Below are positions 29,627 through 38,549 of a stretch of DNA of 64,000 bases, piece by piece. Made by a program: the position numbers and the translations under genes. The DNA comes from Calothrix sp. C42_A2020_038. GTDB lineage: Bacteria; Cyanobacteriota; Cyanobacteriia; Cyanobacteriales; Nostocaceae. Under the pieces are notes generated by a model. It saw nothing but the letters and a program-made list of their open reading frames with translations. It had not been told where the DNA came from and did not search any database. How positions within the stretch are numbered: position 1 is the stretch's first letter; every line of letters starts with the position of its first letter. The DNA lies in the NCBI GenBank assembly GCA_015272395.1, contig JACYLQ010000001.1, positions 310,001 through 374,000 of the forward strand, written 5' to 3'.

Positions 29627-30814
29627 TTAAACAGTATACCAACCAACAGGAGTAGTAGTTGTGGCAGTGCTAGTACCATCAGCAGACCAAATCATATTCT
29701 CTCCTGTTTGGCTATTATGCCAGAACAATTCAGTTCTACCGTCGCCGTTGAAATCACCTAAACTAGATTTCCATTCAGTACCAAGCGATGGTAAAGAAGT
29801 TTGAGTTGCTGTGGCACCATTCATAATCCAACCTACGTTTTCGCCGGTAGCTTCATTACGCCATAACACGTCAATTCTTCCATCACCATTATAGTCACCG
29901 AAAGAATAGTTCCAATTATTGCCTCCACCTTGTGTAGGTAATTGAGCAGCGGTGACAGTGGTGCCATCCATTAACCAAGTTATATTTTCACCAGTATTGG
30001 TATTATGCCAGAAAATATCAGTTTTCATGTCACCATTAAAATCGGTAGCAGAAACTTGCCATTCTGAACCTGGAGCGAATGAATCTAATGCAACTCCATT
30101 TACTTGAGTACCGTTCATTAACCACAAAGCGGTTTCACCAGTACTTTGATTGTGCCAGAACAGATCTGTTCTACCGGTACCAGTAACACTAACGATGGTG
30201 GATTTCCAAGCAGTATCGGTTGTTGCCAGCATTGCGGCTTCAACAACATTGGCGCCATCCATTATCCAGACAGCATTTTCGCCAGTTTGTTTATTGCGCC
30301 AAACTAAATCACTTTTGCGGTTCCCATTAGTATCACCAACAGTGAAATCCCAATTGCTATCAACTGTTGCAAGTTCGGTAATAGAAACAACATTCCCACC
30401 ATCCATTATCCAAGCTTCATTGGCACCGGAATTTTGATTGCGCCAAACTAAATCAGTTTTACCATCACCATTTAAATCCGAAATTTTAAAATCCCAATCT
30501 GCACCACGTGAAGGTAAAAATGCACCTTGAGGACTGGCGCCATCCATCAACCAAATAGCGACTTCACCTGTTTGCTCATTACGCCAAATTTTATCAGTTT
30601 TACCATCACCATTAAAATCAGGGTTAATAGCTGCACTGCTGAAAATTAAATTGGGATTAGGGTTAAATCCTTCAGCATTGACAGAATCTGAGGAACCATT
30701 TAGACTCGGAACATTATTTGAGTATAAACCTTCATCAAAACTATTTTTACTCTGAGTATATATCGAAGCACCAACACCAGTAGAAAGCTCTGTGGATTTT
30801 GTCGATTCAAACAT
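29627..30814 (-). CDS. Seven-repeat FG-GAP/VCBS beta-propeller protein
   Basis: After ~65 low-complexity residues, this 395-residue protein consists of seven ~47-residue repeats. Each has a DFNGDGKTD-type calcium loop, then a W(R/H)N..TGE block and a WLMDG-type turn. This is the FG-GAP/VCBS layout, expected to fold as a seven-bladed propeller. Repeats 3-5 have weakened metal loops (DTNGNRKSD, SVTGTGRTD, DFNGDMKTD). No signal peptide is seen, and export, if any, would need another route. A hairpin-like CTCCCC/GGGGAG lies just downstream (29598-29618). Homologues are common in cyanobacteria as extracellular or surface proteins; the ligand is unknown. Confidence 0.82.
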   Translation of the reverse strand: MFESTKSTELSTGVGASIYTQSKNSFDEGLYSNNVPSLNGSSDSVNAEGFNPNPNLIFSSAAINPDFNGDGKTDKIWRNEQTGEVAIWLMDGASPQGAFLPSRGADWDFKISDLNGDGKTDLVWRNQNSGANEAWIMDGGNVVSITELATVDSNWDFTVGDTNGNRKSDLVWRNKQTGENAVWIMDGANVVEAAMLATTDTAWKSTIVSVTGTGRTDLFWHNQSTGETALWLMNGTQVNGVALDSFAPGSEWQVSATDFNGDMKTDIFWHNTNTGENITWLMDGTTVTAAQLPTQGGGNNWNYSFGDYNGDGRIDVLWRNEATGENVGWIMNGATATQTSLPSLGTEWKSSLGDFNGDGRTELFWHNSQTGENMIWSADGTSTATTTTPVGWYTV

Positions 30815-31230: not shown

Positions 31231-34200
31231 TTAACCAACCTGACGAGTTGGAATTTCGATGACAAATTCGGCGCCTTTGCCTGGTTGAGATAAACAGTAA
31301 AGTTTACCATGATGTTTGTCTGTGATAATTTGATAGCTGATGGAAAGCCCAAGTCCAGTACCTTTACCAACTTCTTTGGTCGTAAAGAACGGGTCGAATA
31401 AGCGTGAAAGACATTCTTCCTTAATGCCAAGTCCATTATCCGCAATACGAATTTCAACCCAGTTTTTGTCCAGTAAGCAAGTAGAAATTTTTATTTTACT
31501 AGGGTTATTTTTGATATCATCAAGTGTTCGATGTTTATCTTTTTCTTCTAAAGCATCAATCGAATTGGATAACAAGTTCATGAAGACCTGGTTGAGTTGA
31601 CCTGGGTAACATTCGATAAGTGGCAACTGGTCATAGTCCTTTTCAATCTGAATACCAAAACAATCAGGTGATGGTTTTAGGCGGTTTTGCAAAATCATTA
31701 ATGTACTATCAATGCCTTCATGGATATTTGCATCTTTGTATTCAGCCTCATCGAGACGAGAGAAATTTCGCAAGCTAGCAACAATTTCCCGAATACGTTC
31801 AGTACCAACCTGCATAGATTGAAATAATTGGGGTAGGTCATTAAATAAAAACTCAAAGTCTGCTTGCTGCAAAAATTCCTGCATTTCTAATGGTGCTTCT
31901 GTACTATAGTATTTTTGATAAATTTCTACAAAGCGAAGTAAATCTTGAGTGTATTGATGAGCGTATATTAAATTGCCATGAATAAAGTTAATTGGATTAT
32001 TAATTTCATGAGCAACTCCTGCAACAAGTTGTCCAAGACTTGCCATTTTTTCAGCATGAACAATTTGCATTTGCGCAGTACGTAATTCATTCAAGGTCTG
32101 AGTCAGCTTCTGAGCTTCTTCTTGGGTTGGTCTAAGCAAGCTTGCTTGTTGGAACAAATTAGCCTGTCGTAATGCAACACTAAGTTGAGCGGCGACTTGG
32201 GTAACAAACTCCAATTCAGCTTCTTCCCACTGGCGCGCGCGAGTACATTGGTGAATGCATAATAATCCCCATAGTTGATTTCCTTCAGTTAAAGGCATGA
32301 CAATTTGTGCTTTGACTTGAAAACGCTCAACTAAGTCACGATAAGGTAATTTCGATCCCACACTTTTGATATCAGACATAACTTCAACTTGTCCTTGGCG
32401 ATATTGTGATGCATACTGTTCGCCAAAACTAGAGTCTTTGACTTTTAACCCTAAAGCAGACTCAAACCTCGGTAGTACATCTTCTGATATAAACTCTCCA
32501 CTACAAAAATCTGTATCGGTGTCAAAGCGAAAAATTCCGACTCGTTCAACTTTGAGGGACTTCCGTACTTCCTGGACAGCAGTTTTAAAAATTGTTTCCA
32601 AATCAAGTGATTCACGAATTTTGGCAACTACATCGAATAAGATTCGGCGTTGTTCCGCAGCTGTTTGCTGTTCATCGGCACGAGTGCGCGTTTCTGCAAA
32701 GGCTTCTGAACTTTGAATCGCGACCCCCATTTGGTTAGCCACCTGTTCTAGAAATTCAACTTCGACATTATCCCACTGACGTTTCTCGGAGTGTTGGTAA
32801 GCAGCTAATAAACCCCAAAGATTTTGACCTACAAAAATTGGTGTCAATACATAAGCACGAATCTTGAACTGCCGCAAAATATCCACATGGCAGCGGGAAT
32901 GTCCAGCAGTATAAATATCTGTAACAGCAAAACTTTCATTATTACGGTAACGTCCTCCATTTGTTTCTTGAAGATAAGTATCTTGCCAGACCAAATTTTT
33001 ACCAAAGGGGTTAATGCTATCCCATTGCGGTTCTACCATGCCAAAATTACTAACAAATTCACCGCTCCAGTCTTCATTAAAGCGATATACAGCAACCCGC
33101 TCAACTCGCAAAAGTTTGCATACTTCCTGGCAAGTGGTTTTTAAAATTAAATCTATGTTCAGCGAAGAACGAATTTTACTAACGACTTCGGTTAATGCTC
33201 GCTGCCGTGCGATTGACTCTTCTAAAGCAAGAGCTTGCTGTTTAGACTGTGTTAAAATCTCAGCTTGTTGAATTGCAACTCCTATTTGTGCCCCTACTTG
33301 TCCAAGAAACTCAACTTCATAATCTAGCCATTGACGCGGCGCCGAGTGTTGGTAAGCTGCGATTAACCCCCATAGTTTGGGGCCAATAAAAATAGGCGCC
33401 AAGGCGTATGCACGAATTTTGAATTGCTCTAAAATTTCAATATGACAGCGCGAATGCCCAGCAGTATAGATATCTGTAACCGCAAAACTTTCATTATTAC
33501 GATAACGCCCACCCTTGTTTTCCTGTAAATAAGTATCTTGCCAAACTAGATTTTTACCGAAGGGGTTGAGATTCCCCCACTGCATTTCTACAATACCAAA
33601 ATGACTAATAAACTCGCCACTCCAGTCATCATTAAAACGGTAAACTGCTGCTCGTTCTAACTTCAATAATTTACAGACTTCTTGACAAGCTGTATCAATA
33701 ATAAAGTTTGTATCTAGGGAAGAACGAATACTTCCCACAACTTCCATTAAAGTGCGTTGTCTTGCAACAGAGTCTTGTAATTCTGCTGTTCGTTGTTTTG
33801 TTTGTTCTAAAATTTCTACTTGTTGTATTGCTATACCAATATAGCTAGCTGCTTGTGCGACAAACTCAACTTCCATAGGATGCCACTGTCGAGGTGCCGA
33901 GTGCTGATAAGCTGCCATTAAACCCCATAATTTGGTGCCAACGAATATAGGTGCAATTGCATATGCACGAATTTGAAACTGTTCCAATACTTCGATATGG
34001 CAACGCGCGTGTCCTGCTTCATAAATATCAGCAACCGCAAAAGGTTCGTTTTTACGGTACCTTCCACCCTGAGTTTCTTGTAAATGCGAATCACTCCACA
34101 CCAAGTCTTGCCCAAAAGCAGTTAATGTATTCCAAGGCGCCTCTGCATAGCCAAGATGATTGATAAAGCTGCCACTCCAATCACTACTAAACCGATATAT

Positions 34201-34395
34201 TGCTACCCGCTCTATCTGGAGTAACCGACAGATATCTTGACAAGAAGTCGAACAAAGAGCCTCTAAGTTAATGCTAGCGCGAATCTTAGCTAAGATGCGG
34301 GCTAGTATTTTTTGATACTCGATTGTCAAATTTAGTTGCTTTTGACATTCTGGCAAGTCTAATTCATGTGATAGGGCACCGTAGCTATTTGTCAT
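31231..34395 (-). CDS. Triple cyanobacteriochrome GAF sensor histidine kinase
   Basis: The 1054-residue protein has four GAF domains (about 30-195, 215-380, 400-565, 585-745), a coiled linker and a kinase core with H-box LVAGVAHEINNPINF (His796), N box LLSNSIDAL and G boxes IADNGLGI and GTGLGLSIS. GAF1-3 share W-x-D (W100/D102, W285/D287, W470/D472), the LQE..GGRYR stretch and Cys-His in GHxRCH (C132, C317, C502). These are the marks of red/green cyanobacteriochromes: the bilin-binding Cys with its His, plus the Trp and Asp that set red absorption. GAF4 lacks the Cys (SKLPYRDL) and should be bilin-free. There is no membrane segment. It lies divergent from the bacteriocin genes. Confidence 0.88.
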   Translation of the reverse strand: MTNSYGALSHELDLPECQKQLNLTIEYQKILARILAKIRASINLEALCSTSCQDICRLLQIERVAIYRFSSDWSGSFINHLGYAEAPWNTLTAFGQDLVWSDSHLQETQGGRYRKNEPFAVADIYEAGHARCHIEVLEQFQIRAYAIAPIFVGTKLWGLMAAYQHSAPRQWHPMEVEFVAQAASYIGIAIQQVEILEQTKQRTAELQDSVARQRTLMEVVGSIRSSLDTNFIIDTACQEVCKLLKLERAAVYRFNDDWSGEFISHFGIVEMQWGNLNPFGKNLVWQDTYLQENKGGRYRNNESFAVTDIYTAGHSRCHIEILEQFKIRAYALAPIFIGPKLWGLIAAYQHSAPRQWLDYEVEFLGQVGAQIGVAIQQAEILTQSKQQALALEESIARQRALTEVVSKIRSSLNIDLILKTTCQEVCKLLRVERVAVYRFNEDWSGEFVSNFGMVEPQWDSINPFGKNLVWQDTYLQETNGGRYRNNESFAVTDIYTAGHSRCHVDILRQFKIRAYVLTPIFVGQNLWGLLAAYQHSEKRQWDNVEVEFLEQVANQMGVAIQSSEAFAETRTRADEQQTAAEQRRILFDVVAKIRESLDLETIFKTAVQEVRKSLKVERVGIFRFDTDTDFCSGEFISEDVLPRFESALGLKVKDSSFGEQYASQYRQGQVEVMSDIKSVGSKLPYRDLVERFQVKAQIVMPLTEGNQLWGLLCIHQCTRARQWEEAELEFVTQVAAQLSVALRQANLFQQASLLRPTQEEAQKLTQTLNELRTAQMQIVHAEKMASLGQLVAGVAHEINNPINFIHGNLIYAHQYTQDLLRFVEIYQKYYSTEAPLEMQEFLQQADFEFLFNDLPQLFQSMQVGTERIREIVASLRNFSRLDEAEYKDANIHEGIDSTLMILQNRLKPSPDCFGIQIEKDYDQLPLIECYPGQLNQVFMNLLSNSIDALEEKDKHRTLDDIKNNPSKIKISTCLLDKNWVEIRIADNGLGIKEECLSRLFDPFFTTKEVGKGTGLGLSISYQIITDKHHGKLYCLSQPGKGAEFVIEIPTRQVG

Positions 34396-34689: not shown

Positions 34690-34938
34690 ATGTCTAACGA
34701 AATCAACACCACCGCCATTGAACTTTCTTTTGACGAACTCGACACTGTTGCAGGTGGTTTAGCTATCAGCTTAGGTGATGTTCAAGGTTTTGCTTCAGAT
34801 GCATCAAATACCTTCTCACAGAAAAATTTAGCAGTTGGTCAGCAAACATTTGCAGGACCAGGTGGTAGCTACACCGCTTCCTTAACAAATGTTCAAGATA
34901 TCTTTAGTAAAGCTGGTCAAGCAATTGCTGCTAAGTAA
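34690..34938 (+). CDS. Double-glycine bacteriocin-like precursor, copy 1
   Basis: The 82-residue peptide has a short acidic leader (TTAIELSFDELDTVAGG) ending in Gly22-Gly23, the site cut by C39-peptidase ABC exporters. The ELSxxELDxVxGG pattern is that of cyanobacterial CTB/NHLP-like precursor families. The predicted mature part, about 59 residues, is rich in Ala, Gly, Ser, Thr and Gln and has no Cys, so it should not be a lanthipeptide or disulfide peptide. A strong ribosome site precedes it. The next copy is identical. The processing ABC transporter is not within the window. Bioactivity is inferred from gene context. Confidence 0.8.
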   Translation: MSNEINTTAIELSFDELDTVAGGLAISLGDVQGFASDASNTFSQKNLAVGQQTFAGPGGSYTASLTNVQDIFSKAGQAIAAK

Positions 34939-35025: not shown

Positions 35026-35274
35026 ATGTCTAACGAAATCAACACCACCGCCATTGAACTTTCTTTTGACGAACTCGACACTGTTGCAGGTGGTTTAGCT
35101 ATCAGCTTAGGTGATGTTCAAGGTTTTGCTTCAGATGCATCAAATACCTTCTCACAGAAAAATTTAGCAGTTGGTCAGCAAACATTTGCAGGACCAGGTG
35201 GTAGCTACACCGCTTCCTTAACAAATGTTCAAGATATCTTTAGTAAAGCTGGTCAAGCAATTGCTGCTAAGTAA
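35026..35274 (+). CDS. Double-glycine bacteriocin-like precursor, copy 2
   Basis: This gene encodes exactly the same 82 residues as the gene 336 bp upstream, with the same ribosome site and upstream 29 bp. Duplication would raise dosage of a structural peptide rather than add diversity. A perfect hairpin follows at 35297, suggesting that both copies form one short transcript separate from the third precursor. Cleavage after AGG would free a peptide beginning LAISLGDVQ. Confidence 0.8.
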   Translation: MSNEINTTAIELSFDELDTVAGGLAISLGDVQGFASDASNTFSQKNLAVGQQTFAGPGGSYTASLTNVQDIFSKAGQAIAAK

Positions 35275-35540: not shown

Positions 35541-35665
35541 CGTGAAATGTAGTAAGACCTCGCAGAAGAGAGGTCTATCGCATAAGTCCCAATCCTCACG
35601 AAATATTCTATTCTTAGAACCCATTCATCTTGATATATCAACTATCTATTCAAATCAAGGAAAAA

Positions 35666-35956
35666 ATGCCCAACGAATTTGATGATATGGAGACTAACCC
35701 TTCCCCAATTGAACTTTCTCAAGAAGAACTAGATGGAATCTCTGGTGGAATCAGTATATTTGTATCGGGTTCGATGTTTGAGAGGAGAGATGTTTTTGCA
35801 CAGCAGCGAAAAGGTTCACGTCGAAGAGGTAGTTCTGTTTTTGCTTCTTCGCACATATTTTCGTCGGCATTTCAAATTATTGGTTTAGGTTTGAACTCTC
35901 CAGGTGATGTGATGAATTTTTTTCGAGGGATATTTGGGTTTTTTGGTAGAAGGTAA
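35666..35956 (+). CDS. Cationic double-glycine precursor peptide
   Basis: The ATG at 35666 follows CAAGGAAAAA and gives 96 residues; an earlier in-frame ATG at 35630 has no ribosome site. The leader SPIELSQEELDGISGG ends at Gly27-Gly28, matching the leaders of the duplicated precursors. The remaining ~68 residues are unlike them: basic (QRKGSRRRGSS) with an amphipathic hydrophobic-cationic end (NFFRGIFGFFGRR). There is no Cys. It is 20 bp before the cyclic-nucleotide-domain gene and probably in an operon with it and the secretion gene. A membrane-active peptide is plausible but unproven. Confidence 0.75.
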   Translation: MPNEFDDMETNPSPIELSQEELDGISGGISIFVSGSMFERRDVFAQQRKGSRRRGSSVFASSHIFSSAFQIIGLGLNSPGDVMNFFRGIFGFFGRR

Positions 35957-35976
35957 ACGATTAGGGAGTTATTACA

Positions 35977-37065
35977 ATGTCAGAAGTCCTACTCAAGGAA
36001 CTTAGCAATCAAGATATTGATTGGATGTTAGCGAATGGACATCAACTAGAAGTTGCATCAGGGCAGGTTTTAGTAGAACAAGGTCAACCACTTGATAAAT
36101 TATACATTTTACTTGATGGTGCCTTGACAGTTGTGCTACAAGCTGGTGAGAACCCATTAGGTCGTGCTTTTGCAGCGTTAGAGGGTGGAATATCAGGCAG
36201 AGAAATCGTGCGTTTGGAGAGTGGAGAGATTGTAGGAGAAATTCCTTTGGTAGAAAATTTGTTACCTTCTACTACTATTTGTGCAAAGAAAAAATCTTTG
36301 GTTTTAGCTATTCCCAAACCTCAACTTGTTCAAAAACTACAACAAGACTTAAATTTTGCTGCGCATTTATATCGAGCATTTGCTGTTATACTTGCTGATC
36401 GTCTTCAGCAAATGATGCAAGAACTAGGACACAGTACAGTGATTTTGAGTAAACCGCAGTTGCGTGAAGCTTTAATAGTATTTGCGGAGTTGCATGATAG
36501 TGATATAGATTGGTTAATTGCTGCAGGACAAATTCAACTGTTTCCGGTAGGTTCAGTATTAATTCGTAGTGGTAGGCCAACTGAGGCACTACATATTTTA
36601 CTCGATGGCGCCGTGGCATTGAATGCTTGTGAAGATAATGGCAATACACTTGCGCGCGCTTTTTCTAATTTAGAAGATAGCAAACAAACAATGGAGCGGG
36701 AGTTGGGCAGATTATCGCGTGGAGATATTGTTGGTGAAACACCTTTTATTAAAGCTCAAACTGAAGCTGTAACGGTTAAAGCTGTAAAAGACTCACGGGT
36801 ATTATCGGTTCCAAAGTGGCGACTATCTGCAAAGTTGCTGCACGATGTTGGTTTTGCTGTTCGATTTTACCGCGTTTTGGCTATTATCTTAGCCGATAAA
36901 CAAGCTGCTCTTGTTCAGCGTTTGGGATATGGTCGGTTAACTTATAGTAACGGTCAGTCTTTGGATAATTCTTTTGCCAATGAACTTAATAATTATTCGC
37001 TTACGCAAATGGGACTTGCTGGCGCCCGTTTTGATTGGATGTTGAAGAGAATTCGGGTTGAATAA
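35977..37065 (+). CDS. Tandem cyclic-nucleotide-binding-like domain protein of bacteriocin cluster
   Basis: The 362-residue protein has two Crp-type sensor domains (about 1-160 and 165-325). They carry the repeated pattern VLVEQGQPLDKLYILLDGAL / VLIRSGRPTEALHILLDGAV and GEIVGEIPLVEN / GDIVGETPFIKA. The phosphate-binding cassette should contain Arg-Ala or Arg-Ser after these; here the residues are LPSTT and EAVTV, so nucleotide binding is doubtful. No helix-turn-helix is present, so it is not a transcription factor. Such proteins accompany NHLM-type bacteriocin export genes. A role in gating or assembling the exporter is inferred. The next gene starts 29 bp later. Confidence 0.78.
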   Translation: MSEVLLKELSNQDIDWMLANGHQLEVASGQVLVEQGQPLDKLYILLDGALTVVLQAGENPLGRAFAALEGGISGREIVRLESGEIVGEIPLVENLLPSTTICAKKKSLVLAIPKPQLVQKLQQDLNFAAHLYRAFAVILADRLQQMMQELGHSTVILSKPQLREALIVFAELHDSDIDWLIAAGQIQLFPVGSVLIRSGRPTEALHILLDGAVALNACEDNGNTLARAFSNLEDSKQTMERELGRLSRGDIVGETPFIKAQTEAVTVKAVKDSRVLSVPKWRLSAKLLHDVGFAVRFYRVLAIILADKQAALVQRLGYGRLTYSNGQSLDNSFANELNNYSLTQMGLAGARFDWMLKRIRVE

Positions 37066-37094
37066 GAAAGTCGAAAAATTAAGGAGAACAATAA

Positions 37095-38549
37095 ATGGTT
37101 ACGCAACAAAATACTCAGAAAAATAAAAATAATTTATTTCGTCAAAAAGCTTTAGATAAGGTTGCTTCTCCAGAACAACTTGACCAATTGATCAAAGTTA
37201 CTAGCCCAAAACGCTGGTTCTCTTTATTTGCACTTGGCGCATTAGTTATTGGTGCTGGAACCTGGAGCGTATTAGGAGAAATACCCGTTGTTATTACAGG
37301 TAGAGGAGTATTAGTTTACCCTAGTAAAGTCGTAACTGTACAAGCATCTAACCCAGGACGTATTTTAGATTTGAAACTTCAAGTTGGCGATACAGTTAAA
37401 AGAGGCCAAGTTGTAGCAACACTTGACCAGTCAGAGTTACGCAAACAACTGCAACTGTCGCATCAGAAACTAACACAGCTAAGAATTCAAGACCAAACTG
37501 CAAATACAGTCCAAATACAACGTTATGCTGTTGAAGAAACAGCGATTGCTCAACAGCGTCAAACTTTACAACAAAGTCTACAAACAGTACAGTCACTAAC
37601 CCCGGTGTTACGAGAAAAAGGATTAGAAGTTCTCAAACGCGAACGCGCAAATTTACGTGAACGGTTAGCAATAATGCGCGGACTACAACCAACTTTAAAA
37701 CAACGCTGGGGGGAACGCCAAAAACTTTTTCAACAGGGCGCCGTTCCTAAAGACATGGCACTGAGCGCACAACAAGAGTACCTCAATGCTAAAGCGCAAA
37801 TTAACGAAGCTGAATCACAGTTAAATCAAATCGATGTCAAGGAAGCTGATGCTCAACGACAATATCTTCAAAACCTGAATCAAGTTAACGAAATACAAAC
37901 ACAGTTGAAAGCTCTAAACAGTCGTCAAGCTGCTCAAAAAGAACAAGATTTTATAACTGCTACTAATCGTAAAAAAGAGATTCAAGAAACCGAGCGTTTG
38001 ATTGCTCAATTAGAATTACAGCTACAAAAAAGTAGCCAAATTATCAGTGATTATACAGGAACTGTTTTAGAAGTCACAGCAAAACCAGGACAACAATTAG
38101 AACCAGGTGTCGGGATTGGTACGATTTCGGCACAAGAATCATCTGCAAAGCTAGTTAATATTGTTTTCTTACCAGTCAGCGAAAATAAAAAAATCAAGAC
38201 TGGTACACCTTTACAAATCACACCCTCTACTGTGAAACGCGAAGAATTTGGTGGCATTGAAGCAAAAGTTACCAAAGTTTCCGAGTTTCCTGTGACTCAA
38301 CAAGGTGTAGCCAGTATAATTGGTAATCCAGATATTTTACCTGGTGTCCTTGATAGAGGTCCTCAAATCGCTGTTTACACAGAACCATTGCTTGCTTCCA
38401 CACCAAGCGGTTACAAATGGTCATCTTCCTCTGGACCACAATCCAAAATCACACCTGGAACCACAACAACAGTCAGAATAACTGTAGAAAAGAAAAAACC
38501 TATTGAGTTTGTCTTACCTATCCTCAAATCCTGGACTGGGGTCAGTTAG
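37095..38549 (+). CDS. NHLM-type bacteriocin secretion protein (HlyD family)
   Basis: The 484-residue periplasmic adaptor has a cytoplasmic N-terminus (~42 residues), one membrane helix (WFSLFALGALVIGAGTWSVL) and a lipoyl-like half-barrel (VTVQASNPGRILDLKLQVGD and TVKRGQVVATLDQ). A long helical hairpin follows, about residues 120-315, rich in Gln/Glu. The second half-barrel contains YTGTVLEVTAKPGQQLEPG. Adaptors of this kind bridge an inner-membrane peptidase/ABC exporter to the outer membrane. A good ribosome site (AAGGAG) precedes the ATG. No ABC transporter follows, so its partner must be encoded elsewhere. Confidence 0.85.
   Translation: MVTQQNTQKNKNNLFRQKALDKVASPEQLDQLIKVTSPKRWFSLFALGALVIGAGTWSVLGEIPVVITGRGVLVYPSKVVTVQASNPGRILDLKLQVGDTVKRGQVVATLDQSELRKQLQLSHQKLTQLRIQDQTANTVQIQRYAVEETAIAQQRQTLQQSLQTVQSLTPVLREKGLEVLKRERANLRERLAIMRGLQPTLKQRWGERQKLFQQGAVPKDMALSAQQEYLNAKAQINEAESQLNQIDVKEADAQRQYLQNLNQVNEIQTQLKALNSRQAAQKEQDFITATNRKKEIQETERLIAQLELQLQKSSQIISDYTGTVLEVTAKPGQQLEPGVGIGTISAQESSAKLVNIVFLPVSENKKIKTGTPLQITPSTVKREEFGGIEAKVTKVSEFPVTQQGVASIIGNPDILPGVLDRGPQIAVYTEPLLASTPSGYKWSSSSGPQSKITPGTTTTVRITVEKKKPIEFVLPILKSWTGVS

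What the first reader, a model, noticed from the sequence alone, without database searches (positions are those of the whole stretch)
31231..34395. Kinase with three tandem predicted bilin-binding GAF domains
GAF1-3 each have the Trp-x-Asp pair, LQE..GGRYR and Cys-His of red/green cyanobacteriochromes; GAF4 has lost the Cys. Three near-identical light sensors in one soluble kinase suggest cooperative or dose-dependent light sensing.
Basis: partly seen in the sequence, partly recalled or inferred. Interest (0 to 1): 0.7.

Follow-up and report, generated by a model that had tools for sequence, protein, structure and literature searches.

The report
Kinase with three red/green light sensors
A cyanobacterial signalling kinase carries three predicted red/green light-sensing domains in a row plus a fourth that has lost its pigment-binding cysteines; multi-sensor kinases of this sort are already known, but its relatives show how the fourth sensor was lost.

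Summary
Window 31231-34395 (-) encodes a 1054-aa soluble histidine kinase with four GAF domains. GAF1-3 each carry W-x-D-x-x-L, GGRYR and a Cys-His exactly 32 residues after the Trp, the published marks of extended red/green (XRG) cyanobacteriochromes (CBCRs). They are not near-identical (53-70% aa identity); in orthologs each position is its own clade, so they are old duplicates. Trp, Asp and Cys are kept in 105 of 105 domains of 35 orthologs. The genome has heme oxygenases and PcyA, so phycocyanobilin should be available. "Cooperative or dose-dependent" sensing is untested; weak residue evidence leans towards colour sensing.

By motif and tree it is a former DXCF (two-Cys) CBCR, not a red/green domain that lost its Cys. 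Among the 35 orthologs, 9 keep both cysteines, 3 only the canonical one, 14 only the DXCF one, and 9, including the window, neither. Loss of the canonical Cys (always to Pro, 23 of 35) goes with a six-residue longer GAF4-kinase linker in every case, though this is one ancestral event. Best reading: a colour-sensing kinase whose output-proximal sensor became a blind relay. New member of a known kind; modest interest.

The parts
31231..34395 (-). Four-GAF soluble histidine kinase, 1054 aa
33820..34308 (-). GAF1 (aa 30-192), XRG red/green-type CBCR; Trp100, Asp102, Cys132
34000..34002 (-). GAF1 predicted bilin-attachment Cys132
33265..33753 (-). GAF2 (aa 215-377), XRG red/green-type CBCR; Trp285, Asp287, Cys317
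33445..33447 (-). GAF2 predicted bilin-attachment Cys317
32710..33198 (-). GAF3 (aa 400-562), XRG red/green-type CBCR; Trp470, Asp472, Cys502
32890..32892 (-). GAF3 predicted bilin-attachment Cys502
32155..32643 (-). GAF4 (aa 585-747), degenerate DXCF-lineage CBCR, both Cys lost
32425..32436 (-). GAF4 remnant of the DXCF motif, D-S-S-F (aa 654-657)
32344..32346 (-). GAF4 Pro684 in place of the canonical Cys
32128..32157 (-). Start of the GAF4-HisKA linker (aa 747-756), region of the six-residue extension found only in orthologs with Cys-to-Pro
31960..32055 (-). HisKA core, phospho-acceptor His796 (H-E-I-N-N-P)
31243..31599 (-). HATPase_c catalytic domain (N, G1, F and G2 boxes present)

Best explanation
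A soluble sensor histidine kinase with no evident partner beside it. GAF1, GAF2 and GAF3 each bind phycocyanobilin through Cys132, Cys317 and Cys502 and switch between a red-absorbing dark state and a green-absorbing photoproduct (inferred from sequence). Each switch changes the helical linker to the next GAF; the array signals through GAF4 and a long helix into the HisKA domain and sets autophosphorylation of His796 (inferred). GAF4 descends from a DXCF two-Cys CBCR whose canonical Cys became Pro in an ancestor and which in this organism has no DXCF Cys either, so it is a blind structural relay (absence of both cysteines shown; relay role inferred). The output is probably a red/green colour readout summed over three sensors that may differ in spectrum or lifetime. 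The partner regulator is unknown.
For: Motifs WXDXXL + Cys, no DXCF, in GAF1-3, the published XRG definition (PMC11284453, passages). Best solved relatives of GAF3 are 6bhn (NpR6012g4), 3w2z (AnPixJg2, recalled name), its variant 5zoh and 5dfx (Slr1393 GAF3). Tree: GAF1-3 lie with these references (100/99), GAF4 with three two-Cys domains of the same genome (100/98). In 35 distinct orthologs Trp, Asp and Cys are kept in 105 of 105 GAF1-3 domains, beta2 Phe in 105 of 105 and helix Phe in 102 of 105. GAF4 Cys states and linker lengths. GAF4 still models as a CBCR GAF (pLDDT 89.0; best hits CBCR crystal structures). Genome holds 2 heme oxygenases by Pfam and 3 bilin reductases matching the models for PcyA, PebA and PebB. 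Kinase boxes present.
Against: No spectrum or kinase assay exists. The full-length model is poor (pLDDT 45.5), so helix continuity is not shown. Ranking of solved structures does not single out DXCF for GAF4: window GAF4's best are 6oap and 6bhn, and even the two-Cys GAF4 of L059 has three XRG chains first, with TePixJ 3vv4 sixth. The tree holds no TePixJ; its DXCF rows are own-genome domains named by motif, and three others with that motif fall outside the GAF4 group. Lower conservation of the GAF4 pocket is seen also in orthologs that keep both Cys, so it does not prove relaxed constraint; and Lys682, Pro684 and Glu690 are invariant in 21 of 21 Cys-to-Pro proteins, so GAF4 is not simply decaying. 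The two heme oxygenases match no NCBIfam model. No conserved neighbour was seen (by eye, seven loci).
Confidence: 0.7

Rival explanations
1. One reading: three equivalent sensors give cooperative or dose-dependent (light-intensity) sensing; the domains revert fast in the dark and report power.
For: Three red/green domains in series. Some red/green CBCRs revert in seconds and are called power sensors (PMC6121604, passages).
Against: The domains are not equivalent (53-70% identity) and each position is its own clade. The Leu of WXDXXL is as in AnPixJg2, listed as very slow: weak, and the paper is not consistent on AnPixJg2.
Confidence: 0.2
2. Spectrally split array: the three domains differ in peak, lifetime or bilin (phycocyanobilin against phycoerythrobilin), so the kinase reads a broader colour or time band than any one domain.
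For: SPI1085, a four-GAF kinase, has adjacent red/green GAF2 and GAF3 with different photoproducts (PMC6121604, PMC9705869, passages). GAF1-3 are separate old clades. The genome has PebA- and PebB-type as well as PcyA-type reductases.
Against: The tuning residues checked are the same in GAF1-3 of the window.
Confidence: 0.4
3. GAF4 still holds a bilin without the canonical Cys, non-covalently or, in the 14 orthologs with the DXCF Cys only, through that Cys.
For: Asp654 and Phe657 of the motif are each kept in 20 of 21 Cys-to-Pro proteins and the DXCF Cys in 14 of 21; the fold is intact. If the DXCF Cys was lost at the base of this clade, the 14 regained it, which would speak for use.
Against: The window protein has neither Cys. 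If regain is excluded, the DXCF Cys was lost three separate times after the Cys-to-Pro change (my reading of the tree).
Confidence: 0.15

Closest known systems
SPI1085 of Spirulina subsalsa (PMC6121604, PMC9705869, passages)
   Same: Four GAF domains and a histidine kinase in 1046 aa; GAF2 and GAF3 are both characterised red/green CBCRs.
   Different: It also has a response-regulator domain; the passages read do not say what GAF1 and GAF4 are.
AnPixJg2, NpR6012g4, Slr1393g3 (XRG red/green CBCR domains)
   Same: WXDXXL and Cys-His; best solved relatives of GAF3.
   Different: Against NpR6012g4 and AnPixJg2, window GAF3 has two extra residues between beta2 and the WXD motif, and GAF1-3 of the orthologs form their own clade.
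TePixJ-type DXCF CBCRs
   Same: GAF4 of 9 of 35 orthologs has both DXCF and canonical Cys; TePixJ structures are among the fold matches of window GAF4.
   Different: Window GAF4 lacks both Cys, and TePixJ is not its closest solved relative.
CcaS with shortened GAF-kinase linkers (PMC5121610, passages)
   Same: GAF-linker-kinase layout; among eleven engineered linker truncations one reversed the light response.
   Different: CcaS is a green/red, membrane-anchored sensor and two PAS domains were removed too; here the linker change is natural and untested.

Membership tests
XRG (extended red/green) CBCR, GAF1-3 | WXDXXL motif | tested here: met
   WSDSHL, WQDTYL, WQDTYL; definition from PMC11284453 (passages)
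XRG (extended red/green) CBCR, GAF1-3 | Canonical Cys for bilin attachment | tested here: met
   Cys132, Cys317, Cys502; 105 of 105 ortholog domains
XRG (extended red/green) CBCR, GAF1-3 | No second Cys in a DXCF motif | tested here: met
   The motif positions read D-S-H-L, D-T-Y-L, D-T-Y-L
XRG (extended red/green) CBCR, GAF1-3 | Groups with known XRG domains in a tree | tested here: met
   100/99 branch with AnPixJg2, NpR6012g4 and Slr1393g3
XRG (extended red/green) CBCR, GAF1-3 | Binds phycocyanobilin and photoconverts red/green | not testable with these tools
   Needs expression and spectra
DXCF CBCR, window GAF4 | Both canonical Cys and DXCF Cys | tested here: not met
   DSSF and Pro684
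DXCF CBCR, window GAF4 | Descent from the DXCF lineage | tested here: met
   Groups with three own-genome two-Cys domains (100/98) and with two-Cys orthologs. Caveats: no TePixJ in the tree, and solved-structure ranking does not single out DXCF
Sensor histidine kinase (HisKA/HATPase_c) | H, N, G1, F and G2 boxes | tested here: met
   Pfam

The most novel reading that the evidence does not exclude
GAF4 shows natural retirement of the output-proximal sensor of a multi-sensor photoreceptor. One ancestral branch fixed Cys-to-Pro in GAF4 together with a six-residue lengthening of the GAF4-kinase helix, which re-set (perhaps inverted) the kinase's response to the remaining red/green sensors. Fourteen orthologs keep, or regained, only the DXCF Cys, which may hold bilin through C10 alone.
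Probability: 0.2. Interest if true: 0.65.

Novelty: new member of a known kind. Interest (0 to 1): 0.4.

Why it matters
It gives a natural series (two-Cys, canonical-only, DXCF-only, none) in one otherwise conserved kinase, so the cost and compensation of losing a light sensor next to the kinase can be tested with real proteins. Three aligned red/green domains in one kinase also make a clean test of how serial light inputs add up.

Tried and rejected
Fixed 185-residue period as a special feature: rejected. In one search the commonest Cys-to-Cys spacing in non-ortholog loci is 183: 16 of 49 spacings by my recount of the printed rows. The script's own tally of 17 took one from the ortholog L109, because it counted L105-L113 as non-orthologs. 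Some orthologs depart from 185 by one to three residues. The two extra residues lie between beta2 and the WXD motif.

Recent duplication or gene conversion among GAF1-3: rejected. Each position is one clade (29, 29 and 29 rows; L105-L113 were not in that tree) and third-position identity is 43-47%.

Conserved neighbours or partner regulator: none seen by eye in seven ortholog loci or beside the window gene.

Full-length structure: too poor to use.

Relaxed GAF4 pocket as proof of lost sensing: not clean, because two-Cys orthologs also show it. Three independent losses of the DXCF Cys: not forced; one loss and one regain also fits the tree.

Paper searches for tandem red/green kinases or DXCF loss; two searches found nothing. 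In their listings and the passages read I saw nothing describing this ortholog group, but the library lacks most subscription papers.

Full report
What is there. Window 31231-34395 on the minus strand is one open frame of 1054 aa. Pfam gives four GAF stretches, HisKA and HATPase_c. There is no transmembrane stretch. W-x-D-x-x-L with Cys-His/Tyr 32 residues after the Trp occurs exactly three times, at Trp 100, 285 and 470; 0 of 2000 shuffles of the protein held the pattern. His796 and the N, G1, F and G2 boxes are present.

GAF1-3. The published definition of XRG domains is WXDXXL, with canonical Cys typical and no DXCF Cys (PMC11284453, passages); all three meet it. A query covering GAF3 has as best solved relatives 6bhn (1.5e-55), 3w2z, 5zoh and 5dfx; 6bhn is NpR6012g4 and 5dfx is Slr1393 GAF3 by the titles, and the name AnPixJg2 for 3w2z is recalled. 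In a 131-row tree (rooted at the midpoint for drawing only) GAF1-3 and the XRG references form one side (100/99). Identities between the three are 53-70%, so 'near-identical' is wrong. Beta2 Phe (F77, F262, F447) and helix Phe (F140, F325, F510) are present; that these go with a blue-shifted (green) photoproduct is from PMC6121604 and PMC5240096 (passages), and their placement on this sequence is by my alignment and recalled numbering. The Leu of WXDXXL is Leu in all three.

Chromophore supply. The genome holds two heme oxygenase genes by Pfam (neither matches an NCBIfam model) and three bilin reductases that match the NCBIfam models for phycocyanobilin, phycoerythrobilin and 15,16-dihydrobiliverdin ferredoxin oxidoreductase above cut-off (gene names PcyA, PebB, PebA recalled). 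Phycocyanobilin, and also phycoerythrobilin, should be available.

Orthologs. Proteins with the same layout occur in 7 of 60 genomes, own included, at 72% identity or more over GAF1-3 (the next best matches there are paralogs at 46-53%); in 20 of 388 genomes drawn from the order (E <= 1e-220, own included); in 14 of 388 drawn from the class (E <= 1e-200, own included, 61-82% identity); these sets overlap. Nine named loci came from one pattern scan (Fortiea, two Nostoc, Calothrix parasitica, an uncultured Calothrix, Myxacorys, Pantanalinema, UBA11371, UBA11372). After dropping four rows identical over their last 900 residues to kept ones (L072, L073, L105, L107) and one fragment (L074), 35 distinct proteins including the window's remain. 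Trp, Asp and Cys are kept in 105 of 105 GAF1-3 domains. Each GAF position is one clade among 29, 29, 29 and 28 rows (made before L105-L113 were fetched).

GAF4. In the window it reads D-S-S-F where DXCF CBCRs have D-x-C-F, and Pro684 where they have the canonical Cys. In the tree it groups with three two-Cys domains of the same genome (100/98). With the two-Cys GAF4 of L059 as query, the best own-genome matches are the window's GAF4, then C38:368463 and C24:530948, which carry D-H-C-F and Cys-His. States in the 35: both Cys 9 (L025-L027, L056-L059, L109, L113); canonical only, D-x-H-F, 3 (L110-L112); DXCF only 14; neither 9 (window, L052, L054, L055, L062, L065, L071, L106, L108). On the tree of GAF1-3 plus kinase the 23 Cys-to-Pro proteins are one clade (94/89), so that loss needs to have happened only once. 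The rows without the DXCF Cys in that clade fall in three places. If Cys is never regained, that is three losses, and the different remnants (S or N; a one-residue deletion; S or Y) favour this; one early loss and one regain in the 14 needs fewer steps if they are one group, which the tree supports only weakly (43/12). The D-x-H-F rows fall in two places. The GAF4 model (62-row alignment, pLDDT 89.0) has CBCR crystal structures as best matches (first 6oap, 8.5e-19), so the fold is kept.

Linker. The distance from the GAF4 Cys position to the kinase His is 113 residues in 23 of 23 Cys-to-Pro proteins and 107 in 12 of 12 others. Measured from the last LWGLL-like motif to the His in all fetched loci, distinct sequences give 82 residues 14 times (nine orthologs and five non-orthologs: L032, L033, L034, L047, L050), 88 sixteen times and 89 once (L003) (the pattern missed many kinases, some orthologs included). 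So the shorter register is shared with other GAF kinases. Since the 23 share one ancestry this is one coincidence on one branch, not 23. In engineered CcaS, one of eleven linker-shortened, PAS-less variants had the opposite light response (PMC5121610, passages), so the natural change could matter.

Results against. GAF4 pocket segments are less conserved than those of GAF1-3 among the 21 Cys-to-Pro proteins (0.695 and 0.709 against 0.858-0.924), but also among the seven two-Cys ones (0.692 and 0.507 against 0.688-0.909). Lys682, Pro684 and Glu690 are 21 of 21, which suggests continued constraint. Solved-structure ranking does not single out DXCF: window GAF4's best are 6oap, 6bhn and 8k9o, and the two-Cys GAF4 of L059 has XRG chains first. 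PMC11284453 also notes that XRG domains can regain a DXCF Cys; the tree speaks against that here but holds no TePixJ. The 185-residue period is ordinary. The full-length model failed. Two same-genus genomes (G002, G006) carry the two-Cys version while the window's gene is closer to genes of other genera, so transfer, or old duplication with loss, is likely and the gene tree is not a species tree.

How it likely works. Shown: motifs, lineage by tree, conservation, absence of both GAF4 cysteines, linker difference. Inferred: bilin binding, red/green switching, signalling through helices, relay role of GAF4, kinase output. The function in the cell and the partner are unknown; I rate red/green colour sensing above intensity sensing.

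Verdict. The layout is a known kind (SPI1085 has adjacent red/green domains in a four-GAF kinase, PMC6121604 and PMC9705869, passages). What I add is the DXCF origin and loss of GAF4 and the matching linker difference.

Noticed in passing
window 34690-34938 and 35026-35274 (+): Two small ORFs encoding an identical 82-aa peptide; the first was scanned and matches the CTB family bacteriocin model NF038167. A recent tandem duplicate by its looks.
   Followed up: partly
window 35630-38549 (+): A third peptide just under that model's cut-off (31.7 against 32 bits), a bacteriocin-type transport-associated cyclic-nucleotide-domain protein (TIGR03896) and an NHLP secretion protein (TIGR03794) look like a peptide-export cluster.
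   Followed up: partly
window 29627-30814 (-): FG-GAP repeat protein beside the kinase gene.
   Followed up: no
G000:C38:366831-369536 and G000:C29:2729-5575: Two more multi-GAF CBCR proteins (1238 and 1337 aa open frames): the first has two tandem DXCF-type GAFs, and three GAFs of the two proteins carry an insert with a Cys before the D-T-Y-L motif.
   Followed up: partly
GAF4 of L022-L024, L051, L053, L060, L061, L063, L064, L066-L070: GAF4 has the DXCF Cys but Pro for the canonical Cys, a combination I did not see described in the passages read.
   Followed up: partly
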